The notes below the pieces were generated by a model. That model was not told the origin of the DNA, searched no databases, and saw nothing but the letters and a program-made list of their open reading frames with translations. Positions 11,734 through 29,372 of a stretch of 41,174 nucleotides of DNA are shown here, in pieces (the stretch's first letter is position 1; each line of letters starts with the position of its first letter). The translations under genes were made by a program, and so were the position numbers. The stretch covers positions 1 through 41,174 of IMG/VR virus record IMGVR_UViG_3300035698_010134. One strand, given 5' to 3'. This DNA is from a virus.

Positions 11734-13194
11734 ATGCAAAAAGACCTATCGCTCACTCAAAATGATTATGCCATATACCTTCCAGCTATAAGCGGAGCGT
11801 ATGCCGGTCCAATTGGTCGGCAATATGAAGACTCCAGCTATATACCGGCCGGTCGAATTCCTCCAGGCATGCCGGATGGACCCACTAGTTTGGATTTCTT
11901 CCGTGATGACCGGTATATGTTTCGATATCCGTGGGCGCTGTTCAGTGCTGGTCATGCCACTTTAGATCCGACGAAGCCTGCTCGTAATGAGACTATGATG
12001 TATGAGAGAAATCGTGACCGTACTTTCTTGCTAGGTGATTCAGGCGGCTACCAAATAGGCAAAGGTGTCTGGGCTGGTGATTGGATCGACCCCAACTGCG
12101 AGCGCGCCGGGAAAAAACGGCGAGAAGTGTTAGCTTGGATGGAAAGGTATATGGATTATGGTATGGTACTCGATATTCCTACTTGGATTAGCAAACGTCC
12201 AGAGAGTGCTGCGGCTACCAATATTCACAGCTTTGACTCTGCGGTCATTGCTACCAAACTAAACCACGAGTATTGGATGAAGCATCGATCCGGCAAGTGC
12301 AAGTTTCTAAACGTTCTTCAGGGCGAAACTCACGGTCAAGCTGATCGATGGTATGAGGAAATGAAAGACTACAGCGATCCCACTATTTACCCAAACACTT
12401 ATTTCAATGGTTGGGCTATGGGCGGTCAAAACATGTGTGACATTCATTTAGTTCTACGTCGGCTAATCACCTTGCGGTTTGATGGTTTACTGGAAGATGG
12501 TATTCATGACTGGATGCATTTTCTTGGGACCAGCAGATTAGAATGGGCAGTTATATTGACTGCTATTCAAAGATCAGTGCGGAAGTATCATAATCCAAAC
12601 TTCACAGTAAGCTTTGACAGTGCTTCGCCGTTCTTGTCAACAGCAAATGGAAAAATCTATACCAAATACCGCATTGAACCAAACACTCGGTGGAGCCTCT
12701 TTATCGAAGATATGATTGATGATAAGAAGTATGCTAACGATCCTACCTTATTAGGTGATGTTATTCGCCGAGAAATACAACCTAATTTTGTCGAAAGCCC
12801 AGTCAGTGAGAAACTACGCATTCAAGACATTTGCGTATATGCTCCTGGCGACGTAAACAAGATGGGTAAAGAAGGTAGGACCAGTTGGGATAGCTTTGCT
12901 TATGCGATTATGATGGGGCACAACGTATGGAGTCACGCTAATGCCGTACAAAAAGCCAACGAAGCCCATGATCGAGGCGAATATTCTAGCATGTTACATG
13001 AAGAAAAATTTGACAGTTTGTATATTCATGCTATAATAGATGAAATATTCCAGCAGACTGATAAAGATCGAGCACTAGCATTAATTGAAGACTACAATTA
13101 TTTTTGGTTACAAATTCAGGGCAGTCGCGGGGCCAGTGGTAAGAAAACACTTAACGGCGAAGCCGCATTTGATGATTTATTTAAAACAAGCTGA
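11734..13194 (+). CDS. dpdA: DpdA-like DNA 7-deazaguanine transglycosylase (TGT superfamily)
   Basis: The 486-residue protein carries tRNA-guanine transglycosylase core motifs: GDSGGYQ (101-107, base-recognition Asp), LDIPTW (146-151), VLQGETHG (194-201, equivalent of the VQGG loop), HFLGTSRLEW (262-271) and VSFDSASPF (292-300), where the Asp is the expected nucleophile. The zinc-binding Cys cluster of tRNA enzymes is not evident. In phages this family (DpdA) swaps guanine for 7-deazaguanine bases in DNA, protecting it from restriction. FolE, QueD and QueE genes at 21.8-24.3 kb supply the precursor. It starts one base after the clamp stop and heads a run of four genes. DpdA is preferred to a tRNA enzyme because of that context and divergence. 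Confidence 0.85.
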   Translation: MQKDLSLTQNDYAIYLPAISGAYAGPIGRQYEDSSYIPAGRIPPGMPDGPTSLDFFRDDRYMFRYPWALFSAGHATLDPTKPARNETMMYERNRDRTFLLGDSGGYQIGKGVWAGDWIDPNCERAGKKRREVLAWMERYMDYGMVLDIPTWISKRPESAAATNIHSFDSAVIATKLNHEYWMKHRSGKCKFLNVLQGETHGQADRWYEEMKDYSDPTIYPNTYFNGWAMGGQNMCDIHLVLRRLITLRFDGLLEDGIHDWMHFLGTSRLEWAVILTAIQRSVRKYHNPNFTVSFDSASPFLSTANGKIYTKYRIEPNTRWSLFIEDMIDDKKYANDPTLLGDVIRREIQPNFVESPVSEKLRIQDICVYAPGDVNKMGKEGRTSWDSFAYAIMMGHNVWSHANAVQKANEAHDRGEYSSMLHEEKFDSLYIHAIIDEIFQQTDKDRALALIEDYNYFWLQIQGSRGASGKKTLNGEAAFDDLFKTS

Positions 13195-13204
13195 GAGAAA
13201 TCTT

Positions 13205-13720
13205 ATGAAACGAGCCTATATTACTGGGAATGACATCGTTGACGCAGTGTTTTTTACCGGTATTGAAATTGAAGACACACCTCACCGAGGTAAGCCAGTA
13301 CTATTTGTAGTAGGGGACCAATCGTTTGAGAGTATCGTATCTAGAGCAAATGACCATCTTATCAACGTCGTTTATATAGGAGCTAATCACAGCTTTACCA
13401 AGTCTGATAACACGGTTGCTACAGTTAAAGCTCTACTAGATCATGGCATTGAGGTAACATATGACTTCACAGTCAGTGATGCTGAATGGGTTAAAGACCA
13501 GTTTGCTGATTACATTTCTCATCCATCACTGACGTTTATGGCAAGTGTAAAGTTTCCATACGCTGATAGCTTTCTAAGCAACACCGTCCTAAAAATTGAT
13601 GACACTGATTTTCAAGCCACCAACAGTGCGGTGTGGACTATTCCTCTAAGAGGAGTAACAAACCTAGCACTTAGAACTGACTGGAACGAATATGGCGAAT
13701 CTGACACCACCATTCGATAA
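13205..13720 (+). CDS. Unknown protein encoded directly after dpdA
   Basis: The 171-residue protein starts ten bases after the dpdA stop, with the dpdA tail and GAGAAATCTT as its leader. It looks like a Rossmann-type alpha-beta protein: YITGNDIVDAVFFTGIEIE, VLFVVGDQSFESIVSRA, INVVYIGANHSF, VATVKALLDHGIEVTYDF, SLTFMASVKFPYAD. The DH, GANHSF and DFTVSDAEW segments hold the most likely functional residues. I do not recognise a named family. Its operon position between dpdA and a QueD-like protein suggests a part in making, tailoring or delivering the deazaguanine base. This is inference from context. Confidence 0.6.
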   Translation: MKRAYITGNDIVDAVFFTGIEIEDTPHRGKPVLFVVGDQSFESIVSRANDHLINVVYIGANHSFTKSDNTVATVKALLDHGIEVTYDFTVSDAEWVKDQFADYISHPSLTFMASVKFPYADSFLSNTVLKIDDTDFQATNSAVWTIPLRGVTNLALRTDWNEYGESDTTIR

Positions 13721-13973
13721 CTTAAATAATGCGATTGATTACTTAGTTGAAAATGAGGTGATATCAAGTTCCTTAAGGGATCGATTAGACGAGTTGAATC
13801 AGCTTTCCCTTAAGGTCGATCGATCCGAATTATACGAAATATTTGATCGGTTAGACTCACTTGAAAAACTAACTCGCCTACTAGATGTAAGGACTGGGCT
13901 GACCGATCAGTATGCTATCGATATGCTTGACCAAGCAGAAACTTATGCCCGTCTAACCAAAGCAAAAACCTAA
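13692..13973 (+). CDS. Small coiled-coil protein (93 aa)
   Basis: The gene overlaps the end of its upstream neighbour by 29 bases in another frame. The product is almost entirely helical, with heptad-like leucine spacing (AIDYLVENEVISSSLRDRL, LSLKVDRSELYEIFDRL, LEKLTRLLDVRTGL), predicting a coiled coil or helical bundle. No enzyme motif is present. Its position between the dpdA-linked unknown gene and the QueD-like gene could mean an accessory subunit, but nothing in the sequence shows this. Confidence 0.6.
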   Translation: MANLTPPFDNLNNAIDYLVENEVISSSLRDRLDELNQLSLKVDRSELYEIFDRLDSLEKLTRLLDVRTGLTDQYAIDMLDQAETYARLTKAKT

Positions 13974-13987
13974 CCCAGAGGAAAAAT

Positions 13988-14371
13988 ATGAGAAATACGT
14001 ATATTGTAATACGAACAGACTTCGAAGGATTTCATTACTACCCAGGTGCTGGTGATATCGATCCTCGAATCCGTTTTTTAGAGTCTGAGCATAGACATAC
14101 CTTCTATGTTACTGTTAAGATTGGAGTCACTCACTTAGACCGAGAACTTGAATTCTTCTTAGTCAAATGGGCTCTAAATGATTTTATTGAAGCTGGAGCA
14201 ATGAATCACAAAAGCTGTGAAATGATTGCTACTGACATTCTTGATCAGCATTTGATCCCACTCTATGGCGATGATCGATATTATGAAGTTAATGTTAGCG
14301 AAGATAATGAGAGTGACGGAATAGTCGAATATATTCCCGTCTCTTTATCGCAATACGAAATCTCTCAGTAA
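13988..14371 (+). CDS. QueD/PTPS-like T-fold protein, second copy near dpdA
   Basis: The 127-residue protein has a T-fold pattern: an N-terminal strand (YIVIRTDFEGFHYY), a histidine pair on a strand (ESEHRHTFYVTVKIGV), a paired helix region (ELEFFLVKWALNDFIEA), SCEMIATDIL, where QueD proteins have PTAENIA, and a closing strand (YEVNVSEDNESDGIVEY), matching the conserved VxVxE strand. It differs clearly from the QueD gene at 23018. The RBS is AGAGGAAAAAT. Being third after dpdA, it could act on a carboxy-deazaguanine or pterin intermediate, for example as a decarboxylase. The fold assignment is moderately sure; the reaction is inferred. Confidence 0.55.
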   Translation: MRNTYIVIRTDFEGFHYYPGAGDIDPRIRFLESEHRHTFYVTVKIGVTHLDRELEFFLVKWALNDFIEAGAMNHKSCEMIATDILDQHLIPLYGDDRYYEVNVSEDNESDGIVEYIPVSLSQYEISQ

Positions 14372-14392
14372 GTGAACAGTACTGAGGATAAT

Positions 14393-14419
14393 CTCCCGTA
14401 AACCGAGGTTATGCGGGAG
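14393..14419 (+). other. RNA hairpin downstream of QueD-like gene
   Basis: CTCCCG (14393-14398) pairs with CGGGAG (14414-14419), and the inner TAAACC and GGTTA segments extend the stem around a GAG loop. No T run follows, so it is not a standard terminator. It may stabilise the 3' end of the dpdA operon transcript or form part of a longer structured RNA with the following elements. Confidence 0.4.
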
Positions 14420-14453
14420 TTGGAACAAATATAGTTCTAGAAAATAGTTATAG

Positions 14454-14461
14454 TATAAATA
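14454..14461 (+). promoter_or_regulatory. TATAAATA box, exact T4 late-promoter consensus
   Basis: TATAAATA in an AT-rich spacer matches the T4 late -10 element exactly. A transcript from here would begin close to 14468-14471, at the base of the hairpin terminator that follows. It could drive the gene at 14535 only by reading through that hairpin. Function is inferred. Confidence 0.35.
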
Positions 14462-14470
14462 TAAAGAGCC

Positions 14471-14511
14471 GTGGGTTGACTTGCTAATCTATTAAAGTCA
14501 ACCCACTTTTT
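14471..14511 (+). terminator. Rho-independent terminator
   Basis: A perfect 12-base inverted repeat (GTGGGTTGACTT at 14471-14482 and AAGTCAACCCAC at 14495-14506) with a 12-base loop is followed directly by TTTTT. It is well placed to end transcription of the clamp-dpdA run before the cargo region. Confidence 0.7.
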
Positions 14512-14534
14512 AATCCACTACATGGAGTATAATT

Positions 14535-14762
14535 ATGGTGGTAAGAGTTCGCGATCGTAAAGTTAATGAAATCTTTGATGACCTTGATCGCTATCGAGCA
14601 TGGTGTGTAGAATTTGGTTATGTCTTCGATGAAGCTGATCTGTACCGTCACCGTTCAAGTTGGAATCTTTACCAACGACACAGACATGGTGACAAAGGCG
14701 TACCCAATCAGTGGGTTCAAGCAACTATGCCATATTACAAGAATAAAGCGCCTAATCGATAA
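14535..14762 (+). CDS. Small conserved marine T4-like phage protein (75 aa)
   Basis: The 75-residue protein starts after an ATGGAGTATAATT leader with a GGAG ribosome site. Its sequence (DRKVNEIFDDLDRYRAWCVE, FGYVFDEADLYR, NQWVQATMPYYK) fits a small, strongly conserved family I associate with marine T4-like phages, with no assigned function. It is basic at both ends and acidic in the middle, mostly helical and cytosolic. It is the first gene after the terminator and shares one base with the next start (TAATGG), so it probably opens the methyltransferase and tctA operon. Confidence 0.6.
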   Translation: MVVRVRDRKVNEIFDDLDRYRAWCVEFGYVFDEADLYRHRSSWNLYQRHRHGDKGVPNQWVQATMPYYKNKAPNR

Positions 14763-15052
14763 TGGACACCTATCGACATCAATTTTTTGATGTAGGCACA
14801 TTCGGTACCAGAAAATCAAGTAACATTCGTAGTATCTCTAACTTTGCAAATTTGTCAGAAATTCAATCAAAGATCACGGCGGCTATGGTTAGAGATGGAG
14901 CTAAACAGAATCGTGATTTTCTTTTCACCCCGAGAGCAATGTCTAACAGTAAAAGAATAGGAGTAACCTTGTCCTATACACCAGATTTTGAAGCAACGGT
15001 GGTTCTTTTATTATTAACATGGGACTCAATCAAATTGAGATCAACATTATGA
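14762..15052 (+). CDS. Hypothetical protein (96 aa)
   Basis: The ATG overlaps the previous stop by one base, giving 96 residues. The sequence begins MDTYRHQFFDVGTFG and ends with a hydrophobic stretch (ATVVLLLLTWDSIKLR) too short and charged to be a clear membrane anchor. The frame overlaps the next start as ATGA. No family is recognised. Coupled packing on both sides supports it as a real gene. Confidence 0.5.
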   Translation: MDTYRHQFFDVGTFGTRKSSNIRSISNFANLSEIQSKITAAMVRDGAKQNRDFLFTPRAMSNSKRIGVTLSYTPDFEATVVLLLLTWDSIKLRSTL

Positions 15053-15744
15053 ATCAAAAAATATACAATAGGCTACTAGAGATAGTGAAAGACTACCCAC
15101 ATTCGCTGGTTGATAGAGACTTGTTGTCTCTATTAGTCAAATACGAGTTTGACGCAGCACTATCTTGTTCGACTAGATCTGCAGAAAATCTAATAGTTCT
15201 AACAAATCTTATTGATGATAAAGTAATGACTAACTATTTTGGCGGTGTTTGGAAACCGTCAGAAGGAGACGGTCCTTCAGACGAAAAAAGACTGACTGCT
15301 CGCATTAAGGAATTAAAGCCTCGGACTATTCTTGATATTGGGTGTGGCGAGAATCATTTGAAACGATCTTTTCCCGCTTTAACTGGCCTAGACCCATACA
15401 CCGCCGCTGCTGATATACGCAAGCCCTTACTAGATTATACTACTGGTCAAAAATATGACCTGGTATTGGTATTGGGAAGCATCAATTTTGGCGGAATAGA
15501 AAAAATTATCGCAGAGTGCGAGAAAGCGATTAGATTAATTTCCGAAAGAGGGAGACTTATTTTTCGAGTAAATCCAGGGATATCTCATCCTTCTGATGAG
15601 AGTCGTTGGATTGACTTTTTTGAATGGTCTCCCTCGTTTATCTGTAATCTCGGTCATGGGTTGGGGATGAAGGTCGAGCGACTCGAACGAGATCGAGTCG
15701 GTCGAATTTATTTTGAATGGTCTGCCCTAAAACCTAAACAATGA
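15049..15744 (+). CDS. SAM-dependent methyltransferase-like protein
   Basis: The start is the ATG coupled to the previous stop (ATGA); an ATG 30 bases earlier is less likely. The 231-residue protein carries a typical motif I, TILDIGCGENHLK (about 93-105), then TGLDPYTAAADIR (motif II region), YDLVLVLGSINFGG (motif IV) and GRLIFRVNPG (motif V/VI). This is a class I methyltransferase fold. The target is unknown: small molecule, sugar or DNA. It is coupled (ATGA) to the tctA permease gene, so it belongs to the cargo operon and not to the replication block. Confidence 0.7.
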   Translation: MNQKIYNRLLEIVKDYPHSLVDRDLLSLLVKYEFDAALSCSTRSAENLIVLTNLIDDKVMTNYFGGVWKPSEGDGPSDEKRLTARIKELKPRTILDIGCGENHLKRSFPALTGLDPYTAAADIRKPLLDYTTGQKYDLVLVLGSINFGGIEKIIAECEKAIRLISERGRLIFRVNPGISHPSDESRWIDFFEWSPSFICNLGHGLGMKVERLERDRVGRIYFEWSALKPKQ

Positions 15745-17192
15745 TTGAGTCTTTAGTAGCCATCAGTGTCGGTACTGTATATGGGTTGGTGATTGGCTTC
15801 ATTCCTGCGGCCGGGGCAACCACTGGTCTGATAGTGCTATTTCCAATCATCGGTTGGTTGATCAGCTTAGGTGAACCATATGCTGCGGTAGTTTTTCTGA
15901 TGGCTACCGTAGCGTCTAGTACCACTGGCGACACCTTTTCTAGTGTCTTATTAGGGATCCCTGGGGCGAACAGTAGTGCCGCTACCGTAGTAGACGGTTA
16001 TCCACTAGCAAAAAATGGCGAAGCTAGTTATGCATTAAGTGCTGCTATAACCAGCAGCACTCTAAACGGCATACTATGGGGGCTACTGACTTTCTCTTTT
16101 CTCCCTTGGTATGGGGGAGTAATGCTCTTTTTCGGCGTGCCAGAGTTATGGGCTCTAACTATGTTGGCGCTGGCTACTGTGGTATTTCTAAGCAACAAAT
16201 GGTGGCTACGAGGACTGATTGCTCTCGGTTTTGGATTAGGCACTGGATTAATAGGAGTAGACCCACTTACCAACTCAGACCGACTAACATTTGGCTGGGA
16301 TTACTTGGCTAGTGGAGTACAACTGATGCCAGTGGTTGCAGGGTTATTCGCTGTTCCTGAACTCATTGGTGCTTGGAGATCTAGTTCAATACAATACAAT
16401 AATCATGACTACGGTCGTCAAACCTTAGATGGTATCAGAGACACCGGAAAACATTGGGTTGCTAGCATACGAGGCGGAGTGATGGGAGGCATAATTGGGA
16501 TTCTTCCGGGACTTGGCGGGGCGATTGCTGACTGGCTAGCGTATAGTCAAACCGTTGCTAACACAAAGAATCCCAGTCCAGCATTTGGTGAAGGTAACAT
16601 CATCGGAGTGATTGGTGCTGAAGGCGCGAACAACGCACAAAAAGCAACCAGTATGATACCAACAGTATTATTTGGTATTCCTGGAGCTCCATTTGCGGCA
16701 GTGTTGATAGCTATGTTTACCTACCTAGGTTTTGAAGTAGGATCTATTACATTACTGTCAGATCAATCATTTTTTGACAGTCTGTTTCTAGGCTTTATAG
16801 GAGGCACTGTTCTCACCGCATTGATTTGTTATGCTATTATTCCGTTAGCAGGTCAGTTTATGAGGATTCCGTTCTGGATATATGCACCGATTGTTATGGG
16901 TCTAATAGTATGGAGCTGTCTCCAATACACTGGTACTATTGATGATCTAATTATGCTTGTGATTTTCGGAGCAATCGGTGTCTTTTGTAAGGTTTTCAAA
17001 TTTAACCGTATTGCTTTATTGATTGGTTTCTTGTTATGCGGTAGAATTGAAAAACTTTCAATACAATTAATTGACATCTACTCAGTGGAGATGTTATTAT
17101 CGAATAATGTGTTCTTACTAATACTAGGGTGTATAATCTTATTATTAGGCTGGACCATTATATTCAGGCAAAATAAAATCAATTTTGCTTGA
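15741..17192 (+). CDS. tctA: TctA-family large permease subunit (tripartite tricarboxylate transporter)
   Basis: The 483-residue integral membrane protein has the two-repeat TctA pattern. In the first half: GLVIGFIPAAGATTGLIVLF, SSTTGDTFSSVLLGIPGANS and AATVVDGYPLAKNGEASYAL. In the second half: GGIIGILPGLGGAIADWLAY and SMIPTVLFGIPGAPFAAVLI. About ten to twelve hydrophobic helices are visible, close to the usual 500 residues. TctA is the transport channel for secondary uptake of citrate-like or other organic acids with a periplasmic TctC. It is coupled to the methyltransferase upstream, and a TctC-like gene follows 400 bases later. A normal TctB is missing. Intact and likely functional; substrate unknown. 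Confidence 0.9.
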   Translation: MIESLVAISVGTVYGLVIGFIPAAGATTGLIVLFPIIGWLISLGEPYAAVVFLMATVASSTTGDTFSSVLLGIPGANSSAATVVDGYPLAKNGEASYALSAAITSSTLNGILWGLLTFSFLPWYGGVMLFFGVPELWALTMLALATVVFLSNKWWLRGLIALGFGLGTGLIGVDPLTNSDRLTFGWDYLASGVQLMPVVAGLFAVPELIGAWRSSSIQYNNHDYGRQTLDGIRDTGKHWVASIRGGVMGGIIGILPGLGGAIADWLAYSQTVANTKNPSPAFGEGNIIGVIGAEGANNAQKATSMIPTVLFGIPGAPFAAVLIAMFTYLGFEVGSITLLSDQSFFDSLFLGFIGGTVLTALICYAIIPLAGQFMRIPFWIYAPIVMGLIVWSCLQYTGTIDDLIMLVIFGAIGVFCKVFKFNRIALLIGFLLCGRIEKLSIQLIDIYSVEMLLSNNVFLLILGCIILLLGWTIIFRQNKINFA

Positions 17193-17201
17193 TTCTATTG
17201 C

Positions 17202-17230
17202 TTGACAATACCCATTGTCAGGTAAATACA
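17202..17230 (+). promoter_or_regulatory. Candidate promoter between tctA and mini membrane genes
   Basis: TTGACA (17202-17207) is a perfect -35 with a weak AATACA-type -10 about 17 bases on. GGTAAATA (17221-17228) overlaps it. TGACAAT and ATTGTCA (17203-17219) form a short inverted repeat that could act as an operator. Early and late readings are both possible. Confidence 0.35.
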
Positions 17231-17233
17231 ACA

Positions 17234-17249
17234 GTGATATAGATATCAC
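17234..17249 (+). promoter_or_regulatory. Palindromic operator-like site
   Basis: GTGATAT and ATATCAC form a 7-base inverted repeat separated by AG, located just downstream of the candidate promoter and 20 bases before the start at 17269. Its size and position suit a repressor site or a small 5' hairpin. No regulator is identified. Confidence 0.3.
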
Positions 17250-17268
17250 CTAAAAAGAGAACTAACGA

Positions 17269-17412
17269 ATGAAGAATAAACTGTATGACGTTGCTACTAT
17301 CGCAGTAGTGATCGCAATTGTACTATTTGGCGTGGGCGGTTTTGGAGCATTTACCAACAGTGGTCAAGTGTTTGAAGATCCAATCGTTCCAGATGGCACT
17401 AACGACAATTAA
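17269..17412 (+). CDS. Mini membrane protein A (47 aa) in the tct cluster
   Basis: A short frame starting at ATG 17269 after AAAGAGAACTAACGA encodes one hydrophobic helix (VATIAVVIAIVLFGVGGFGA, residues 8-27) followed by a short acidic tail containing SGQVFEDP. A second tiny gene just downstream has the same layout and the motif NGQVFENP, so the two are paralogues. They sit exactly where tctB would be between permease and binding protein, although TctB usually has about four helices and 150 residues. They may be small accessory subunits; this is inference. Confidence 0.6.
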   Translation: MKNKLYDVATIAVVIAIVLFGVGGFGAFTNSGQVFEDPIVPDGTNDN

Positions 17413-17433
17413 TCAACCACGGAGAAAATGAAT

Positions 17434-17571
17434 ATGAACAAATCAGTACTTATGTATGTGGCCGCAGGTGTGGTAGCACTTGTAATCTTGGTCGGGGCTG
17501 TTGTAACATTTACAGGTAATGGACAGGTTTTTGAAAATCCATTAACTGTTGAGACCCCTTCTAGTAACTAA
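17434..17571 (+). CDS. Mini membrane protein B (45 aa), paralogue of A
   Basis: ATG 17434 is preferred because GGAG at 17421 gives proper spacing; ATG 17428 would be too close. The product has one helix (MYVAAGVVALVILVGAVVTF, residues 7-26) and a tail with GNGQVFENPLTVE. The shared GQVFExP motif and one-helix layout show duplication of mini gene A. Fourteen bases and an AGAAAGAAAATAA leader separate it from the TctC-like gene, so all three are probably one transcript. Confidence 0.6.
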   Translation: MNKSVLMYVAAGVVALVILVGAVVTFTGNGQVFENPLTVETPSSN

Positions 17572-17585
17572 CAGAAAGAAAATAA

Positions 17586-18665
17586 ATGACAAAAACCAAA
17601 GCACTTATTGGAGTGCTTAGTTTGGTGGTTTTGGGCGGTATTCTTGCCCTTAATCACCAAACTACTACTCCTCAGCCAGCTAATTTCACGTTTGTAGTGC
17701 CACAAGAACCTGGTGGCGGGACCAGCGTTTGGGCAGAAATTGTAGCCCGAGAAATGGACAAGTATCTTGATGGTACAATTACTATCCGACATATTCCCGG
17801 TGCCAGAGATATCCCAGGGTTTGATCAATGGCATAATGAGCTGCAATCTGATCCTTCGATGGTTATGGTAAGTCATGGTGGTAACGGAGAAGCATTTCTT
17901 CAAGAAGATGTTGACTATGACTATCGAGAATATGCTAGTGTAGGGATAATGAATCTCAATATCATTGCCGGTATCAGAACCGACAGCGATCCGTTTAACC
18001 CGGTATTCGCAGCTGGTAGTGGCATGACCCCAGAAGCGTTTGCTATGACCATGCTGATCTGTGGGCCCGGGTTGACTGTTGAACAATATACTGCCTGTTT
18101 CCAAGACAGTGTCACTTGGGTACGAGGCATGAACAGTGGTGAACGACGACTAGCTTTCCAACGAGGTGAGCTCACCGCAACTAGAGAGAATCCGGCAGCA
18201 TATCAAGTGCATGTTACTCCTCTAGAATACGCGAGTGTCTGGTTTCATCATGGTCTAATGCAACCAGACGGCAGTCACACCGATGACCCGAATTACCCAG
18301 GCTATCAATTTGAAACACTGTTTGAAAATCTATGGGGCGAGGCACCAAGTGGTGATTTTTACAATGCCTATAAATTAGTAAAGAGTTTTCGAGATGTTCT
18401 TCAAAAGGCGCTATGGGTCAGTGCTGACAACCCACACCTAGAAGAACTACGAGAAGCGCTAAGACAGGTAGCATCTAATCCAGAAAGTGTCGCAGCGATT
18501 GCGAGTGACGTAGGCAACTACGAATGGGTTATCGGCGAGGAAGCCGAATCTCTTAGAGACACCTTGTATGGTTTCATTACCCTGCAAACTCTAACTGACT
18601 TAGCTTACTTTAGTGAACAGGGACTTGGCTTAGAGTCACAGATCAAATTGGACCTGATTCAGTAA
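17586..18665 (+). CDS. tctC: TctC/Bug-like periplasmic solute-binding protein
   Basis: The 359-residue protein has an N-terminal export or anchor segment (ALIGVLSLVVLGGILAL, residues 6-22) without a lipobox Cys. It then has the TctC pattern: FTFVVPQEPGGGTSVWAEIV (the family's substrate-binding PGGG loop), a strand leading to IRHIPGARDI, MVMVSHGGNG and YREYASVGIMNL. TctC proteins bind organic acids or amides in the periplasm and hand them to TctA. Length fits the family's roughly 320 residues plus the anchor. A run with Cys at about 155-175 (LICGPGLTVEQYTACF) departs from the family norm and may form a disulfide. The ligand is unknown. Confidence 0.75.
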   Translation: MTKTKALIGVLSLVVLGGILALNHQTTTPQPANFTFVVPQEPGGGTSVWAEIVAREMDKYLDGTITIRHIPGARDIPGFDQWHNELQSDPSMVMVSHGGNGEAFLQEDVDYDYREYASVGIMNLNIIAGIRTDSDPFNPVFAAGSGMTPEAFAMTMLICGPGLTVEQYTACFQDSVTWVRGMNSGERRLAFQRGELTATRENPAAYQVHVTPLEYASVWFHHGLMQPDGSHTDDPNYPGYQFETLFENLWGEAPSGDFYNAYKLVKSFRDVLQKALWVSADNPHLEELREALRQVASNPESVAAIASDVGNYEWVIGEEAESLRDTLYGFITLQTLTDLAYFSEQGLGLESQIKLDLIQ

Positions 18666-18666
18666 C

Positions 18667-19329
18667 ATGAATCAGTATGTTTTCTTTGCTGGCGCTCCTG
18701 GAAGTAAATGGAGCAGTGTTGTAAAAAACATCTATTGGAGTGATGATTTTGATCACTCCGACTACAGTGAAGAACGAACGTACTACCATGATGCTGACAC
18801 TCCTGGATACCCGCAATTGATGCACTTAGGTGCTTATTGGGATCCCGGCATGGAGTTTGGAAATCACTGGTGGGATTTCGGCGACTACAGCAAAGACGAA
18901 CTACAACGTGATTATGATGCGCCGTTTGGAGAGAAATCATCCGCTCGGCGCATCATAAAAAGTCATATATTTTGTAGTCATTTGCCTAAGATATCCCGAT
19001 TATGGGATGGTATGCCTATTGTTATGGTGTATCGTAATGACTATGAATGCTTAGAGTGGTGGAAACGCTGTGGTGAATTCAAGATCACATATCCTTCATA
19101 CGAACGATATTATCAAAACCTAGACCACATGCGTGACCAAATAGAAATTCAAAACCAAAACATAATGGGGTTTATTCACGACCATAGTGACAATACCAAA
19201 AGAGTATGGTCGAACGTTGATCTAGCTCGTGAGTTGGGTATTAGACTAAATGCCCAACAGCGCTCACCTCGAAACCTTCATGATTATCAAGAGAAGGATA
19301 TTCAAGTTTATGTCTACCAACCCAAGTAA
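18667..19329 (+). CDS. Sulfotransferase-like P-loop protein
   Basis: The 220-residue protein begins with a strand and a loop, VFFAGAPGSKWSSVVKNIYW (4-23), that resembles the 5'-phosphosulfate-binding loop of sulfotransferases. Later PIVMVYRNDYECLEWWKRCG (about 116-135) occupies the 3'-phosphate-binding region, with Arg in the expected place but Glu/Cys where the usual Ser is. Such divergent sulfotransferase-like proteins are frequent in marine phages. It starts one base after the tctC stop and overlaps the oxygenase gene. Activity is uncertain; it might act on a sugar or cell-surface molecule together with its neighbours. Confidence 0.6.
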   Translation: MNQYVFFAGAPGSKWSSVVKNIYWSDDFDHSDYSEERTYYHDADTPGYPQLMHLGAYWDPGMEFGNHWWDFGDYSKDELQRDYDAPFGEKSSARRIIKSHIFCSHLPKISRLWDGMPIVMVYRNDYECLEWWKRCGEFKITYPSYERYYQNLDHMRDQIEIQNQNIMGFIHDHSDNTKRVWSNVDLARELGIRLNAQQRSPRNLHDYQEKDIQVYVYQPK

Positions 19330-19978
19330 CTGGCAAGCCGGAATAGAACAGAGCAACTTTCACTTTGACTGGCAGCGACAAGAACCAGCAGGGTATGACT
19401 ACCGTTGGATTGGACGATTTTCGGGGTATTGGGAGAGTGCTTTAGAAAGAACTCTAAAGATAGCTACATCAAAAACTTGGGAATCACGTGGGAAGAAACG
19501 TCATCCACAAGACGCTGATCTAGAGAGTGAGCTGAGAGATTTACGCCAAGCTGGGATCGATCCCGATAAACCTATCTTTCACAAAACTGATCAATTAGAA
19601 CCGGTGTTCCAACGCATGGTTGATTTCTTAGGTATGACTGACGTCAAAGCTAATATACATATCCAACATCCTGGTGAAATGCTTCAGCTCCATGTCGATA
19701 AACAACGTGAGATGAACAACGATCCAAATCAGGTTGCTCGCATGTTTATATTTTTAGAAGATTGGAAACCCGGTCATTTTATTCAAATGGGAACAAGTTT
19801 CCTTCGTTGGAGAAAAGGCGACATTATATACTTTGATTGGCGAAACATACCACATGCTACAGCTAATGCTGGGTGGGAACCTCGCTCTCTCGTACAGGTA
19901 ACTGGTACCATTACTAGTGCTACACAAGAATTACTAAGTGGTATTCATAATTCAATTGACAGTGTCTTTCAAGTGTAA
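19310..19978 (+). CDS. 2-oxoglutarate/Fe(II) oxygenase-like (Asp/Asn beta-hydroxylase type)
   Basis: The start at ATG 19310 follows GAGAAGGA. The 222-residue protein contains an iron-binding HxD (H128 and D130 in MLQLHVD) and a distal His (H182 in IPHATANAG), followed by R192, which fits the 2-oxoglutarate-binding Arg. The core is a cupin-like jelly roll (IHIQHPGEMLQLHVD, RMFIFLEDWKPGHFIQMG, KGDIIYFDW). Such enzymes hydroxylate proteins, nucleic acids or small molecules. Lying between sulfotransferase-like and glycosyltransferase genes, it may tailor a glycan, lipid or protein. The substrate cannot be told from sequence. Confidence 0.7.
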   Translation: MSTNPSNWQAGIEQSNFHFDWQRQEPAGYDYRWIGRFSGYWESALERTLKIATSKTWESRGKKRHPQDADLESELRDLRQAGIDPDKPIFHKTDQLEPVFQRMVDFLGMTDVKANIHIQHPGEMLQLHVDKQREMNNDPNQVARMFIFLEDWKPGHFIQMGTSFLRWRKGDIIYFDWRNIPHATANAGWEPRSLVQVTGTITSATQELLSGIHNSIDSVFQV

Positions 19979-20001
19979 TACGCTAGCGAAAAGGAATCAT
20001 T

Positions 20002-21090
20002 ATGACCATATATGTTGTTGAAATCGAACCAATTCCCACCCGCTACACAGAACAATGGAAAACCCATGTGCCTAAACAATTAGGGCGGCACACTGATGAG
20101 CCTATTGTAGTAATTGAAGGTGAAATGGTTGACAGCGAAACAACCCCAGGCATGTTTTTAAACTTCAGTGCCACTAACATCTATAAAAGCAGTCAAATGC
20201 GCGAGATTGCTGTGATGTTTGATCGCCGAGAGATTAAGGACGGCGACTACTTCTTATATACTGATGCTTGGAACCCCACTGTCATACAGTTAAAATATAT
20301 GGCCGATCTGTTTTCAATCGATCTTGGTATCGGTGGTATGTGGCACGCTGGCAGTTATGATTCTTATGATGGTCTGGGACGACATATCGGCGCAGCTCCT
20401 TGGGTAAGGCATGCCGAACGTAGTATGTTCGAATGTTATACTCACAACTTCTTTGCTACTAGGTTTCATGCTAAGCTATTTGGTTCCGGCGTGTTGGATC
20501 ATTTTGACGGGAAAAGACCTCATAAAGACGGTATTCCATACGATGATAGTATTGTTATAACTGGCTGGCCGATGGAATACCTGAAAGACGAACTCGCGCC
20601 CTATCGAGATCTCGAAAAGCAGCCAATGATTTTATTTCCACATCGCGTTGCTCCAGAAAAGCAACCTGAAATATTCCGAGACTTATCTACCACTCTGCCA
20701 GAGTATGAATGGGTAATGTGCCAAAATCAAAAGCTAAGTAAACACGAATACCATACTATGCTAGGCGAAGCTACTATAGTATTCAGTGCGAATTTACAGG
20801 AGACCCTTGGAATCTCATGGTTCGAAGGGTGTTTAGTTGATACAGTACCTCTTGTACCAAATAGACTCAGTTATTCTGAAATGGCTATTGATCAATACTC
20901 ATACAATGAACGATGGACCAGCAGCTGGCAAAATTACCAGAACATGAAAGGTGAGTTGGTGAAACGAATCAGAGATGTGATGGAGAATCCACAAACGTAT
21001 CGATCTCATTTGACCGAACAGATACAGAAGCTTGATAGCTTCTTTAACGGTGATGTACTGTACAAAACAATTACATCGAGGAATCAATAA
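20002..21090 (+). CDS. GT-B fold glycosyltransferase (GT4-like)
   Basis: The 362-residue protein starts after AAAAGGAATC. The N-terminal half is divergent, with TDAWNPTVIQLKYMADLF. The C-terminal half is typical of GT-B enzymes: MILFPHRVAPEKQPEIFRDL (about 209-228), a cysteine-linked strand YEWVMCQNQ and the E-x7-E-like signature QETLGISWFEGCLVDTVPLV (about 264-283), which binds the nucleotide sugar. It may glycosylate phage DNA, a virion protein or a host surface structure. Fixed cargo context (oxygenase and sulfotransferase-like neighbours) favours a surface or small-molecule target, but DNA cannot be excluded. Confidence 0.72.
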   Translation: MTIYVVEIEPIPTRYTEQWKTHVPKQLGRHTDEPIVVIEGEMVDSETTPGMFLNFSATNIYKSSQMREIAVMFDRREIKDGDYFLYTDAWNPTVIQLKYMADLFSIDLGIGGMWHAGSYDSYDGLGRHIGAAPWVRHAERSMFECYTHNFFATRFHAKLFGSGVLDHFDGKRPHKDGIPYDDSIVITGWPMEYLKDELAPYRDLEKQPMILFPHRVAPEKQPEIFRDLSTTLPEYEWVMCQNQKLSKHEYHTMLGEATIVFSANLQETLGISWFEGCLVDTVPLVPNRLSYSEMAIDQYSYNERWTSSWQNYQNMKGELVKRIRDVMENPQTYRSHLTEQIQKLDSFFNGDVLYKTITSRNQ

Positions 21091-21446
21091 TGTCTGCTAT
21101 ACCCGCCACGGCAACTTTAAGTAAACTAGATCTCGTTGAAAGAGAAGATAATCGAACTACCAAAAACAAAAACACTCGAACCGTAGAATCAGTGCTAACA
21201 CTATATGAACCGACCGAAGATACATTTCGACGAATTAGAGAGCGTTATCAATCATTTAGCGAATGCTTAATCTTAAATACCTCGAGTGTGAAGTCGGTTT
21301 CCCTAAACAAGGACGACTCTATCATGTATATCACCAACGTTTTAATAAGCCAAGATCATCCAGAATACCAAGAGTTTGAGGTGATGATGGCAATGGGAGT
21401 ATTCACTCACCTGTTAGATGGTACTGGTCGATTGACGAGGTTATAG
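21090..21446 (+). CDS. Hypothetical protein (118 aa)
   Basis: The ATG overlaps the glycosyltransferase stop (TAATG). The 118-residue product has a Lys/Asn/Thr-rich N-terminal tail, then a helix and strands (DTFRRIRERYQSFSECLIL, SVSLNKDDSIMYITNVLIS, EFEVMMAMGVFTHLL). No family recognised. Coupling to its neighbours on both sides supports the call. Confidence 0.55.
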   Translation: MSAIPATATLSKLDLVEREDNRTTKNKNTRTVESVLTLYEPTEDTFRRIRERYQSFSECLILNTSSVKSVSLNKDDSIMYITNVLISQDHPEYQEFEVMMAMGVFTHLLDGTGRLTRL

Positions 21447-21730
21447 TGAAAGACAAATCCACTAACCATAACCGTATATTAGTAGAACAAATCGATCTAG
21501 GTGAATTCAACCTCGACAATGGATCGATTCGTGATCGAGTTGATTTCCTCAGCGCGAACGGGCTATCTCCAAAGATGAATATAGATATGGAAAGTAGATT
21601 TCCTGCTGATCCTCACTCCACCGTCGGAGTATCGTCAGCACCAGTGTACTTGAGTATAACCGTCGACCCGGTAGTAGACAATTTCGACGAAACTATGACG
21701 TTGTATAATATGAAGTTTTGTTCAAAATAA
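21446..21730 (+). CDS. Hypothetical protein (94 aa), GTG start
   Basis: A GTG one base into the previous TAG (TAGTG) starts a 94-residue soluble protein with a short helix and terminal strands (PVYLSITVDPVV, TMTLYNMKFCSK). It ends the cargo run; an AT-rich spacer with the folE promoter follows. No family recognised. Confidence 0.5.
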   Translation: MKDKSTNHNRILVEQIDLGEFNLDNGSIRDRVDFLSANGLSPKMNIDMESRFPADPHSTVGVSSAPVYLSITVDPVVDNFDETMTLYNMKFCSK

Positions 21731-21741
21731 CCAATTATATA

Positions 21742-21770
21742 TTGCTATTTTCAATGGTAAATACTATAGT
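21742..21770 (+). promoter_or_regulatory. Sigma-70-like promoter before folE
   Basis: TTGCTA (21742-21747), 17 bases and TATAGT (21765-21770) precede folE by 41 bases; a CGGAGAAACT ribosome site follows. GGTAAATA (21756-21763) and the palindrome TACTATAGTA lie in the same spacer, so a second, late-type start is possible. Confidence 0.45.
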
Positions 21771-21811
21771 ATAAAAAGATAGACATCCACGTCTATAACT
21801 CGGAGAAACTA

Positions 21812-22507
21812 ATGAAAACAAGTGAAGTAATACGACAACGCATTCAGAATGATAATGCGAAATTTTTTGCCAACAGTAATATCAGTGAATACATCAAGGA
21901 CGGAGAACTAGACAGTCTAATAGACGAATTAGAAGAGCAGTTCTCAGGTGTCTTGCACTCGTTGGTAATTGACACTGATAATGACCCAAACAGCGTGGGT
22001 ACCGCTAGACGACTAGCAAAAATGTATGTAAACGAATTGATGCAAGGACGGTATTCATCGCCGCCAGGTGCTACTGCTTTCCCTAATTGTGAGAGTAATG
22101 GCTATAAGGGCATGTTGGTGGTACGCGCAGAATTGACCAGCATGTGTAGCCATCATCATCAGCCAGTAACTGGTGTTGCTTATATCGGCATTATTGCGGC
22201 TCAAAATCTATTGGGGTTGAGTAAATATTCGAGGGTAGCACAATGGTGTGCTCGACGCGGGACTTTACAAGAAGAACTGGCTACAGACATTGCTCGAGAA
22301 ATTCAAAAAGTTACTCAGAGTGAAAACATCGGAGTTCATATCGGAGCTCAACACGGATGTTGTCTTCATCGGGGGATTCAAGCATCTTCGAGTCTTACCC
22401 AAACAACAGTCTTGCTTGGATCATTCTTTAATGATCCTGGAGTGAAGAAAGAATTCTTTGACAATATCAAACTTCAACAAAGTAACACCAGAGGAGATGT
22501 GTACTAA
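21812..22507 (+). CDS. folE: GTP cyclohydrolase I (FolE)
   Basis: The 231-residue enzyme opens GTP to 7,8-dihydroneopterin triphosphate, the first step of the 7-deazaguanine pathway. The zinc site is visible: SMCSHHHQP (110-118) supplies Cys112 and His115, and HGCCLHRG (181-188) supplies the second Cys. GLSKYSRVAQWCARRGTLQEEL (136-156) matches the conserved LSK-x-x-R-x-x family block. Size matches bacterial type I enzymes (about 220 residues). It opens the folE-queD-queE operon behind its own promoter, so the phage can supply precursor without the host enzyme. Confidence is high. Confidence 0.93.
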   Translation: MKTSEVIRQRIQNDNAKFFANSNISEYIKDGELDSLIDELEEQFSGVLHSLVIDTDNDPNSVGTARRLAKMYVNELMQGRYSSPPGATAFPNCESNGYKGMLVVRAELTSMCSHHHQPVTGVAYIGIIAAQNLLGLSKYSRVAQWCARRGTLQEELATDIAREIQKVTQSENIGVHIGAQHGCCLHRGIQASSSLTQTTVLLGSFFNDPGVKKEFFDNIKLQQSNTRGDVY

Positions 22508-22508
22508 T

Positions 22509-23012
22509 ATGAGCTTTCCAGATGTAGACCTACTGACACAATCGCTCCGCGAACAGCTATTTAAAAAAATCGAAAAGATGAACAACAAGGACCGCGAGTT
22601 AACCAAGTACCAAGGTACTACTAATACCCACCTAAGTACTTCTAACGATACCTCAGATACCTCAGATACCTCAAATACCTGGCACGATCGATACGTATGG
22701 CGTGATAAGACGAATTACCCTTATCCAAATTTTCCAAATTATCCAATTCGATTCCCAGACTCTAGAACTACCACCGCGGAACGATTACCAATAGACGGCG
22801 ATGATATAATGATAACGATTGATAATTCTAGAGTGTCCCTTAGTAAGGTCTTAGAACCACTGATCGATCAGTCTAGAACTATTATCGATCGTGATGACAC
22901 TGTTGACCCGCAATTAGACTTAATGTATAGTGATTATTTGGGCAAGGTGGCAGAGTTGAAAGACATTGTTGACATGTACCGTACATTTGAAGCATTGCTA
23001 AAGGCGAAATAG
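22509..23012 (+). CDS. Hypothetical protein with low-complexity repeat, between folE and queD
   Basis: ATG 22509 follows the folE stop directly; AGAGGAG at 22489 is a rather distant ribosome site. The 167-residue product has an N-terminal helix (LLTQSLREQLFKKIEKMNN), a Thr/Ser/Asp-rich linker with DTSDTSDTS, an aromatic-Pro stretch (NYPYPNFPNYPIRFP) and a helical C-terminus (LGKVAELKDIVDMYRTFEAL). It looks like a two-ended adaptor with a flexible centre. Its position inside the deazaguanine operon is notable but no motif links it to catalysis. Confidence 0.55.
   Translation: MSFPDVDLLTQSLREQLFKKIEKMNNKDRELTKYQGTTNTHLSTSNDTSDTSDTSNTWHDRYVWRDKTNYPYPNFPNYPIRFPDSRTTTAERLPIDGDDIMITIDNSRVSLSKVLEPLIDQSRTIIDRDDTVDPQLDLMYSDYLGKVAELKDIVDMYRTFEALLKAK
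22647..22680 (+). repeat. Short tandem 9-base repeat
   Basis: GATACCTCA is repeated three times in tandem, followed by a partial AATACCT, encoding the DTSDTSDTS linker. Such in-frame microrepeats change length by slippage; only the linker would be affected. Confidence 0.8.
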
Positions 23013-23017
23013 AGATC

Positions 23018-23503
23018 ATGGAATACGATACTAACGAACGATTTTTTACTTCAACCAAAAGTTATTATAACTTTCCATGCGCGCATAGACAATTTAGACA
23101 CGATGGTAATTGTGCTCTTATCCACGGGTACAGTCGTAGCTTTCATTTTGTCTTCGCTGCTATAACTACCACTAAAGAAGGATTTATTGTTGACTACGGC
23201 GATCTAAAAGAACTTAAAGCGCATTTGGATTATATGTACGACCATACTCTTGTGCTTGATCCGGAAGATCCTTTAATGGACACTTTTCGTGAATTAGAAC
23301 GACAAGGAGCCTGTGCTATTCGTATTCAACCACTCGGTCCTGGTATGGAAGGTGCTGCGCACTATCTCGGTGAATGGTCTGATAAGTGGCTGCGAGAGAA
23401 AACCAAGGGACGTGCTTGGGTCATTAGTGTCGAAGCTCGAGAAAACGATAAAAACAGTTCAATTTACCATAATCCAAATACTGGATTCAAAGGATGGAAG
23501 TAA
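23018..23503 (+). CDS. queD: QueD-like 6-carboxytetrahydropterin synthase
   Basis: The 161-residue protein makes 6-carboxy-tetrahydropterin from dihydroneopterin triphosphate. His23 (FPCAHRQF) and His36 (IHGYSRSF) fit two zinc ligands; the third, usually His in HGH, is Tyr38 here (HGY), a variant I associate with phage QueD-like proteins, and His43 is a possible substitute. Cys32 fits the catalytic Cys. DYGDLKELKAHLDYMYDHTLVL (65-86) supplies the Asp/His pair, and VISVEARENDKNSS (141-154) the substrate-binding Glu strand. It stands four bases before queE. The call is firm as a family member; whether the HGY form keeps full activity is uncertain. Confidence 0.85.
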   Translation: MEYDTNERFFTSTKSYYNFPCAHRQFRHDGNCALIHGYSRSFHFVFAAITTTKEGFIVDYGDLKELKAHLDYMYDHTLVLDPEDPLMDTFRELERQGACAIRIQPLGPGMEGAAHYLGEWSDKWLREKTKGRAWVISVEARENDKNSSIYHNPNTGFKGWK

Positions 23504-23506
23504 CAT

Positions 23507-24346
23507 ATGTTTGGAACTAACCAAATTGTCGGCCAGAAGTGGTTCCGTGAAAACGAAGAAGCTAATGCTGGTAAACTGTACGTAACCAGTAGGTTCTATA
23601 CGCTTCAAGGTGAAGGTCCCAAAGCTGGTTACCCTGCGATCTTTATTCGATTGACCAAATGCAATTTGAAATGTGCTTGGTGTGATACGTTCTTTGACGA
23701 AGGTGATTGGTACACCCAAGAAGCATTGATTGATGAAATTAAAACTCTAACACCGCATCCTACCAAATCAATTGGAATCGTATTGACTGGTGGCGAGCCG
23801 ATGCTGCAGGCTAACATCAGTCAATTAATTGAGAAGCTGCTAAAAGAATACGCTTGGGTTCAAATTGAGAGCAACGGGATTGTTTATCAACCTCTGCCAG
23901 AAGAAACTATTCTAGTGATCAGTCCAAAATGCTCAGAAAAAGACGGGGTTAGTGTAAAATACATTAAGCCACATCCTCGCAATCTTGATCGTGCGGCGTG
24001 TCTCAAGTTTGTAATGAGTAGTCCAGAGAATGAATCAGATTATTCTCCATACGCCGAAATACCAGAATTTGCGTTTGAGTGGCGAACTAATACTGGTAGA
24101 GACATATATGCTAGTCCGATGAATATCTATAACGAAGAGCCACAAGCTAGTAAAAAGGCGCGGCTTTTAAAGAATCGCCTCGAAGTCGAAGAGCGAAGCA
24201 CGGTGGATGAAAAAATCAGTTGGTGGACACCTGGTCTATTGAACATGGATGCTAATCAACGAAATCACGAATACACTGCTCAATATTGTTTGGATCATGC
24301 GGTACGGTTGAATCTGCAACAACACCTTTATGCATCATTGGCATAG
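23507..24346 (+). CDS. queE: QueE, 7-carboxy-7-deazaguanine synthase (radical SAM)
   Basis: The 279-residue protein turns carboxytetrahydropterin into 7-carboxy-7-deazaguanine (CDG). The radical SAM cluster is CNLKCAWCD (Cys52, Cys56, Cys59), preceded by the family hallmark YTLQGEGPKAGYPAIFIRLT (31-50). TGGEP is the SAM-binding loop, and SPKCSEKDG follows. Length is at the upper end of the family (about 210-280). It ends the operon; a new promoter lies in the next 70 bases. With FolE and QueD, the path to CDG is complete. No QueC gene is in the window, so conversion to preQ0 would need host QueC or does not occur. Confidence 0.92.
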   Translation: MFGTNQIVGQKWFRENEEANAGKLYVTSRFYTLQGEGPKAGYPAIFIRLTKCNLKCAWCDTFFDEGDWYTQEALIDEIKTLTPHPTKSIGIVLTGGEPMLQANISQLIEKLLKEYAWVQIESNGIVYQPLPEETILVISPKCSEKDGVSVKYIKPHPRNLDRAACLKFVMSSPENESDYSPYAEIPEFAFEWRTNTGRDIYASPMNIYNEEPQASKKARLLKNRLEVEERSTVDEKISWWTPGLLNMDANQRNHEYTAQYCLDHAVRLNLQQHLYASLA

Positions 24347-29292: not shown

Positions 29293-29300
29293 TACAGAAA

Positions 29301-29344
29301 CTGAGTGCGAGGGTGTTGACAGCACTCGCACTCAGTGCTATTAT
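29301..29344 (+). promoter_or_regulatory. Sigma-70-like promoter inside an 11-base inverted repeat
   Basis: TTGACA (29316-29321), 17 bases and TATTAT (29339-29344) precede the ATG at 29373, with AGGAG as ribosome site. A perfect inverted repeat, CTGAGTGCGAG (29301-29311) and CTCGCACTCAG (29325-29335), brackets the -35. It could be an operator or a hairpin ending the upstream transcript. Confidence 0.6.
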
Positions 29345-29372
29345 AATTAGACAGAGATAGGAGTTATCGACA

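What the first reader, a model, noticed from the sequence alone, without database searches (positions are those of the whole stretch)
11734..24346. A 7-deazaguanine DNA-modification pathway split over two loci and lacking QueC
DpdA-like transglycosylase (11734) and FolE-QueD-QueE (21812-24346) are all recognisable by core motifs. Known biochemistry: FolE, QueD and QueE end at 7-carboxy-7-deazaguanine, and QueC is needed for preQ0. No QueC-like gene (PP-loop SGGxDS motif) is visible in the window. Deoxy-CDG and deoxy-7-deazaguanine are reported phage DNA bases, so this phage may carry one of these or a new derivative. The link from CDG to the DNA base is inferred.
Basis: partly seen in the sequence, partly recalled or inferred. 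Interest (0 to 1): 0.85.

Follow-up and report, generated by a model that had tools for sequence, protein, structure and literature searches.

The report
Phage cassette rewriting DNA guanines, QueC-free
This large-phage fragment carries one conserved gene cassette, found in hundreds of phage sequences, that should replace guanines in phage DNA with a 7-deazaguanine made without the usual enzyme QueC, using two extra uncharacterised enzymes, one of which looks like a sugar-adding enzyme.

Summary
The genes are real: a TGT-fold DpdA (11734), FolE (21812), QueD (23018) and QueE (23507), with no QueC in the window. The window is a 41-kb fragment of a jumbo phage related to Sinorhizobium phage Phosso and Pseudomonas phage PA5oct. 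Both of those have complete genomes (469 and 287 kb) that carry FolE, QueD, QueE and DpdA but no QueC, so the absence is not only a fragment artefact. "Two loci" is wrong. In IMG/VR the usual order is DpdA, T17812, GT, FolE, (QueD), QueE, and the window has an insertion of mostly non-conserved genes in the middle. T17812 (13988-14371) is a small QueD-like T-fold protein. GT (20002-21090) is a GT4-like glycosyltransferase. Neither occurs in 80 QueC-seeded loci, and QueC is in none of 232 loci seeded on GT, DpdA or T17812. Controls (Vibrio 2.275.O, Nanhaivirus) pair DpdA with QueC/QueF and lack both partners. Best reading: a QueC-free branch from CDG in which T17812 processes CDG, DpdA inserts the base and GT glycosylates it. 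The base itself is unproven, and glycosylation is inferred from gene linkage. Cultured phages (PA5oct, Paride, ACP17, Phosso) make it testable.

The parts
11734..13194 (+). DpdA-like guanine transglycosylase (486 aa), TGT fold
   Evidence: 13 phage records match, all jumbo phages; TGT motifs conserved; AlphaFold pLDDT 90.2; Foldseek: top 26 hits are TGTs, prob. 1.00
13205..13720 (+). 'N' protein, 171 aa, unknown function, directly after DpdA
   Evidence: 36 of 41 large GT/DpdA-seeded loci (as ORF 13085-13720); among named phages only the 11 PA5oct-like records and ACP17 (2 records)
13988..14371 (+). T17812 (phrog_17812), 127 aa, QueD-like T-fold protein; proposed to process CDG in place of QueC
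   Evidence: 41 of 41 large loci; model pLDDT 92.9 with b-b-a-a-b-b topology; Foldseek to QueD/PTPS and QueF-like, prob. 1.00; H16, H35, H37, C77, E78, E105, D106, E108 invariant in 65 sequences
14762..19978 (+). insertion in the cassette, mostly not conserved: weak methyltransferase (15019-15744), TctA (15741-17192), TctC-like ORF (17586-18665), ORF 18667-19329, 2OG/Asp-hydroxylase-like ORF (19250-19978)
   Evidence: TctA PF01970 5e-95; PF05118 0.0042, below its cut-off; first four genes in 0 of 41 large loci, the last in 5 of 41
20002..21090 (+). GT: GT4-like glycosyltransferase (362 aa); proposed to glycosylate the modified base
   Evidence: 41 of 41 large loci; PDB profile hits are glycosyltransferases, best 6tvp E 0.0011; PHROG glycosyltransferase 0.002 for the PA5oct homologue; R215-x4-K220 and E267-x7-E275 invariant in 52 sequences
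21812..22507 (+). FolE, GTP cyclohydrolase I
   Evidence: PF01227 5.8e-37, phrog_2197
23018..23503 (+). QueD, 6-carboxytetrahydropterin synthase
   Evidence: PF01242 2.6e-17, phrog_2389 6.3e-34
23507..24346 (+). QueE, CDG synthase (radical SAM, CX3CX2C)
   Evidence: phrog_2076 1.2e-49; 52% identical to Phosso QueE; CNLKCAWC motif read

Best explanation
This is a DpdA-dependent 7-deazaguanine DNA-modification cassette of the QueC-free (CDG) branch. FolE, QueD and QueE make 7-carboxy-7-deazaguanine (CDG). The QueD-like T-fold protein T17812 takes the place of QueC (and QueF) and acts on CDG or on the inserted base. DpdA exchanges guanine in phage DNA for the product. The GT4-like glycosyltransferase GT adds a sugar to the modified base. 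Shown here: the genes, their folds or families, the conserved linkage, and the mutual exclusion with QueC. Inferred: the order of steps, the chemistry of T17812, that the acceptor of GT is the base, the sugar, and the purpose (evasion of restriction and other DNA-targeting defences).
For: (1) The order DpdA-T17812-GT-FolE-(QueD)-QueE dominates 232 IMG/VR loci. In all 41 GT/DpdA-seeded loci of at least 18 kb, DpdA, T17812 and GT occur together, with FolE in 39 and QueC in 0. (2) Unbiased QueE seeding: of 38 loci of at least 18 kb, 27 have T17812+GT and none of those has QueC; 3 have QueC and none of those has T17812 or GT (Fisher P 0.01, kinship ignored). Reverse test: 80 QueC-seeded loci contain 0 T17812 and 0 GT. 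(3) PF06508 finds no match in complete Phosso, PA5oct, PAC2, ACP17, BUCT-ZZ01 and RHph_I1_18. (4) T17812 accompanies three DpdA types: the window type; phrog_10773 (ACP17, X1, BUCT-ZZ01); and a Bipper-like type in Amycolatopsis prophages. Vibrio 2.275.O, with the window-type DpdA, has QueC and QueF and lacks T17812 and GT. (5) T17812 is a QueD-like T-fold. (6) 19 phage records match GT (20 counting BUCT-ZZ01); in every lineage examined a CDG-pathway gene is in the genome, including distant PhiXhv-12 with Gat-QueC and QueE. (7) ACP17, X1 and BUCT-ZZ01 carry GT but no thymidylate-synthase-family gene, so the known route to 5-hydroxymethylpyrimidine acceptors is absent.
Against: No base has been measured. 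Host QueC could still supply preQ0. T17812 also occurs without a nearby GT (RHph_I1_18, MA9V-3, Amycolatopsis prophages), so glycosylation is not obligatory. If T17812 merely decarboxylates CDG, the product has no obvious group for GT. Several large cassette-bearing contigs carry a divergent SGGxDS/CxxC PP-loop protein elsewhere. GT linkage could reflect a different substrate. The loci are related to one another, so the counts are not independent. Most contigs are fragments.
Confidence: 0.55

Rival explanations
1. A simple QueC-free base: T17812 decarboxylates CDG (the role called DpdL in the literature, from memory) and DpdA inserts 7-deazaguanine (dDG), or DpdA inserts CDG itself (dCDG). GT does something unrelated to the base.
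For: T17812 occurs without GT in several QueC-less phages. The T-fold with a conserved His triad suits a small deazapurine or pterin substrate. dCDG and dDG are known phage bases (Cui 2023; paper not held, known from its citation in PMC12783734 and from memory).
Against: GT is in 41 of 41 large GT/DpdA-seeded loci and beside DpdA or FolE in unrelated lineages, which is hard to explain if it is unrelated.
Confidence: 0.25
2. Host QueC completes the pathway: the phage boosts CDG, host QueC makes preQ0, DpdA inserts preQ0, and GT acts elsewhere.
For: Many bacteria have QueC (control genomes). DpdA-only phages exist and may rely on host-made precursor (PMC6884629).
Against: QueC absence is tied to T17812 presence across three DpdA types, and related phages with QueC lack T17812 and GT.
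Confidence: 0.15
3. The window's genome has its own QueC outside the sequenced 41 kb.
For: The window is a fragment of a genome likely to be several hundred kb. Some large cassette contigs have QueC-like PP-loop proteins.
Against: No PF06508 match in complete Phosso, PA5oct, PAC2 and ACP17. None over the cut-off in 28 of 30 large contigs (59-518 kb); the other two have only short partial matches.
Confidence: 0.1

Closest known systems
Phage dPreQ0/dG+ systems (phage 9g, CAjan; PMC6884629)
   Same: FolE, QueD, QueE and a TGT-fold DpdA proposed to insert a 7-deazaguanine in DNA
   Different: No QueC or Gat-QueC. T17812 and GT are added. The DpdA is not found by Pfam or PHROG.
Mycobacterium phage Bipper (QueC-less; PMC6884629 suggests CDG is possible)
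   Same: DpdA, QueD, QueE and FolE without QueC
   Different: No GT gene listed beside it. Its gp4, in the place that T17812 has in Amycolatopsis prophages, is not detectably homologous to T17812.
dCDG/dDG phages and DpdL/DpdM/DpdN (Cui et al. 2023 NAR; not readable here)
   Same: CDG-derived bases inserted by DpdA
   Different: To my memory no glycosyltransferase was described. Whether T17812 belongs to the family called DpdL could not be checked.
T4-type base glucosylation (alpha-/beta-GT on 5hmC)
   Same: A phage glycosyltransferase that would modify a hypermodified base in DNA
   Different: The acceptor would be a guanine analogue, and three GT-bearing phages have no thymidylate-synthase-family gene.

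Membership tests
DpdA-dependent 7-deazaguanine DNA modification | TGT-fold transglycosylase with the catalytic Asp motifs | tested here: met
DpdA-dependent 7-deazaguanine DNA modification | CDG synthesis genes FolE, QueD, QueE | tested here: met
DpdA-dependent 7-deazaguanine DNA modification | 7-deazaguanine present in virion DNA | not testable with these tools
   needs LC-MS of nucleosides
preQ0-type (dPreQ0/dG+/dPreQ1) systems | QueC or Gat-QueC | tested here: not met
   window; complete relatives; large contigs
preQ0-type (dPreQ0/dG+/dPreQ1) systems | QueF or QueF-like reductase/amidotransferase beside the genes | tested here: not met
   0 of 232 loci
PTPS/QueD superfamily (T17812) | T-fold b-b-a-a-b-b topology | tested here: met
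PTPS/QueD superfamily (T17812) | Zn-binding His triad | tested here: inconclusive
   H16, H35 and H37 are invariant and fit the triad by sequence; metal binding not tested
PTPS/QueD superfamily (T17812) | QueD catalytic Cys four residues before HxH | tested here: not met
   that position is an invariant Leu31, so T17812 is not filed as a QueD
GT4 glycosyltransferases (GT) | R-x4-K and E-x7-E donor motifs | tested here: met
   R215/K220 and E267/E275 at 100% in 52 sequences
GT4 glycosyltransferases (GT) | GT-B fold | tested here: inconclusive
Published DpdA subfamilies (DpdA1-4) | sequence membership in one subfamily | tested here: inconclusive
   no PHROG or Pfam hit; published subfamily sequences not held
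DpdL (CDG decarboxylase) | homology of T17812 to published DpdL | not tested
   paper and sequences not held

The most novel reading that the evidence does not exclude
A widespread class of phages carries a glycosylated 7-deazaguanine in its DNA, made by a preQ0-independent route: CDG is processed by a new T-fold enzyme family, inserted by DpdA, then sugar-coated by a dedicated GT4 glycosyltransferase. It would be a guanine counterpart of T4's glucosylated hydroxymethylcytosine.
Probability: 0.42. Interest if true: 0.9.

Novelty: new variant of a known kind. Interest (0 to 1): 0.77.

Why it matters
7-Deazaguanine DNA bases let phages escape restriction (PMC6884629). As far as I know, every described derivative carries only a small group at C7. 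A cassette that swaps QueC for a T-fold protein plus a glycosyltransferase predicts bulky, sugar-bearing guanines, and it was found in hundreds of viral contigs. It also occurs in cultured phages such as PA5oct, MIJ3 and Paride, where two papers checked do not mention it. One LC-MS run on virion DNA would settle the base, and two single-gene assays would settle the enzymes.

Tried and rejected
Two separate loci: rejected, relatives have one cassette and the window has an insertion of mostly non-conserved genes. QueC hidden elsewhere: no PF06508 match in complete Phosso and PA5oct; their only SGGxDS ORFs look like an NAD synthetase (by sequence context) and TilS (reported for the close relative MIJ3). 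Cellulophaga phi38:2 as a QueC-less precedent: rejected, it has QueC. Bipper gp4 as a T17812 homologue: not detectable by HMM or hhalign. The QueD HGY change (second His of HxH to Tyr) as a marker of altered function: rejected, QueC-bearing phages share it. 2.275.O gene 469 as a GT: no similarity. Profile search of DpdA against PDB sequences: nothing, even with 54 sequences; the fold comparison was needed. Single-sequence IMG/VR scan with DpdA: no relatives; the alignment scan worked. Nanhaivirus DpdA as phrog_10773: not so. My 'DpdAy' profile mixes two subfamilies, so its counts only mean 'another DpdA-like'. Promoter scan: no more hits than shuffles.
Full report
WHAT THE WINDOW IS. The window is a whole IMG/VR record of 41,174 bases, linear and probably a fragment. 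Its family B DNA polymerase is closest to Sinorhizobium phage Phosso (469 kb), Agrobacterium phage Atu_ph07 (490 kb) and other jumbo phages. It is therefore likely a piece of a genome of several hundred kb, and absence of a gene in the window alone proves little.

THE OBSERVATION. FolE, QueD and QueE are clear. The ORF at 11734 has no Pfam or PHROG match and no PDB sequence match even as a 54-sequence profile. Its AlphaFold model (pLDDT 90, pTM 0.89) matches tRNA-guanine transglycosylases in all of the top 26 Foldseek hits at probability 1.00. The TGT-type motifs DSGGxQ, LDxP and the nucleophile-like D295 are invariant in 54 relatives. It is a DpdA-like enzyme. QueC is absent by profile and by motif in six frames.

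ABSENCE OF QueC IS A LINEAGE PROPERTY. Complete genomes of Phosso and PA5oct carry FolE, QueD, QueE and the same DpdA type. Neither has a PF06508 match; nor do PAC2, ACP17, BUCT-ZZ01 and RHph_I1_18. Controls with QueC (2.275.O, Nanhaivirus) were detected in the same search. In 30 large cassette or QueE contigs of 59-518 kb, 28 have nothing over the cut-off. Two have short partial matches just over it. These and similar weaker hits lie in PP-loop ORFs with SGGxDS; some also have a Cys-rich tail. They may be the QueC-like singletons that Hutinet et al. consider a different subgroup (PMC6884629), and remain a caveat.

ONE CASSETTE, WITH TWO MISSED PARTNERS. tblastn of window proteins against Phosso and PA5oct showed shared order: polymerase, sliding-clamp-like protein, DpdA, a 127-aa protein (T17812), a glycosyltransferase-like protein (GT), FolE, QueE, exonuclease, AAA+ and VWA genes, with local rearrangements (in Phosso DpdA lies elsewhere, and in PA5oct FolE and QueD do). 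In the 232 loci kept, the dominant order is DpdA-T17812-GT-FolE-(QueD)-QueE, with no QueC and no QueF. In all 41 GT/DpdA-seeded loci of at least 18 kb DpdA, T17812 and GT occur together. The window genes between T17812 and GT (methyltransferase, TctA, TctC-like and others) occur in almost none of these loci, except the 2OG-like ORF (5 of 41). The apparent second locus is thus an insertion.

MUTUAL EXCLUSION WITH QueC. Seeding on QueE, independently of the partners, gave 38 loci of at least 18 kb: 27 with T17812+GT and no QueC, 3 with QueC and neither partner. Seeding on QueC gave 80 loci with no T17812 and no GT. The Fisher P for the QueE set is 0.01 and ignores kinship. The pattern crosses DpdA types. 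T17812 sits with the window-type DpdA, with phrog_10773-type DpdA in ACP17, X1 and BUCT-ZZ01, and with a Bipper-like DpdA in Amycolatopsis prophages, next to QueD-QueE-FolE and terminase. Vibrio phage 2.275.O has the window-type DpdA with QueC and QueF and lacks both partners.

WHAT T17812 AND GT ARE. T17812 is predicted with confidence (pLDDT 92.9) as a b-b-a-a-b-b T-fold. Its best PDB matches are QueD/PTPS proteins and the archaeosine synthase QueF-like (prob. 1.00). H16, H35 and H37, the likely zinc ligands, are invariant, as are C77, E78, E105, D106 and E108. The position of the QueD catalytic Cys is an invariant Leu, so it is not a QueD. GT carries the R-x4-K and E-x7-E motifs typical of GT4 enzymes at 100% conservation. 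A 7-sequence profile hits PDB glycosyltransferases weakly, but a deeper 52-sequence profile did not, so its fold is untested. The GT family is rare in named phages: 19 records, 20 with BUCT-ZZ01. Every lineage I examined carries CDG-pathway genes, including the distant PhiXhv-12, where GT lies beside Gat-QueC and an annotated sugar deacetylase and QueE is in the genome. Background: 257 of 50,697 phage records matched the window QueE. ACP17, X1 and BUCT-ZZ01 have GT but no thymidylate-synthase-family gene, so the known 5-hydroxymethylpyrimidine route is missing.

MECHANISM PROPOSED. FolE, QueD and QueE make CDG (established biochemistry; PMC13329287). T17812 acts on CDG or its DNA form in place of QueC/QueF (inferred from linkage and exclusion). 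DpdA exchanges it for guanine in DNA (inferred from the family). GT glycosylates the base (inferred from linkage). The chemistry of T17812 is open. If it only decarboxylates, GT lacks an obvious acceptor; if it leaves or makes a polar group, a glycoside or glycosyl ester is possible. T17812 without nearby GT in some phages suggests its product can be a finished base.

WHAT IS KNOWN. QueC-less phage Bipper was noted in 2019 as possibly CDG-modified (PMC6884629). dCDG and dDG were later reported (Cui 2023, cited in PMC12783734; not held, so details are from memory). Literature searches found no paper linking DpdA to a glycosyltransferase in this way, and the MIJ3 and Paride papers do not mention the pathway. 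Whether T17812 equals published DpdL is untested. I therefore call this a new variant of a known kind.

LIMITS. Co-occurrence counts come from related loci and are not independent. IMG/VR loci are fragments and were the best 80 hits per scan. Profiles were built from few sequences, and the DpdAy profile mixes two subfamilies. No base was measured.

Noticed in passing
window 15741-18665: TctA (PF01970, E 5e-95) followed by an ORF that reads like a TctC-type binding protein (no Pfam hit), inserted in the phage cassette; one relative (L292) carries both genes near its cassette.
   Followed up: partly
window 13205-13720: Protein 'N' (171 aa, unknown) directly after DpdA; in 36 of 41 large GT/DpdA-seeded loci and, among named phages, only in the PA5oct group and ACP17.
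   Followed up: partly
L065 7762-10996 (Xanthomonas phage PhiXhv-12): Gat-QueC annotated as a fructose-6-phosphate aminotransferase, followed by an annotated BshB/PIG-L-type deacetylase and a distant GT: possibly an amino-sugar on an archaeosine-type base.
   Followed up: partly
L425, L427, L429 (Amycolatopsis genomes): Prophage-like loci with Bipper-like DpdA, T17812, QueD, QueE, FolE and terminase/portal genes, without QueC in the locus.
   Followed up: partly
L428 5975-9397 (Aurantimonas sp.): DpdA-T17812-GT in an isolate genome contig.
   Followed up: no
L301, L302, L406, L407: PP-loop ORFs with SGGxDS in large cassette-bearing contigs, some with a Cys-rich tail; QueC-like singletons of unknown function.
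   Followed up: partly
window 23018-23503: The QueD family here has HGY instead of the usual HGH zinc motif; the same holds in QueC-bearing phages, so it is not specific to this cassette.
   Followed up: yes
window 28129-30668: AAA+ (MoxR-like) ATPase next to a DUF2201 metallopeptidase/VWA protein, conserved in Phosso and PA5oct.
   Followed up: no
L055 9158-9721 (PA5oct 169 kb): PA5oct has a second, divergent PTPS gene next to its FolE, besides its QueD.
   Followed up: no
L310 7212-8363 and L313 7428-8309: T17812 fused behind unrelated N-terminal parts (unknown in Vibrio phage Bakedbeans, endonuclease VII-like in Chryseobacterium phage MA9V-3).
   Followed up: partly
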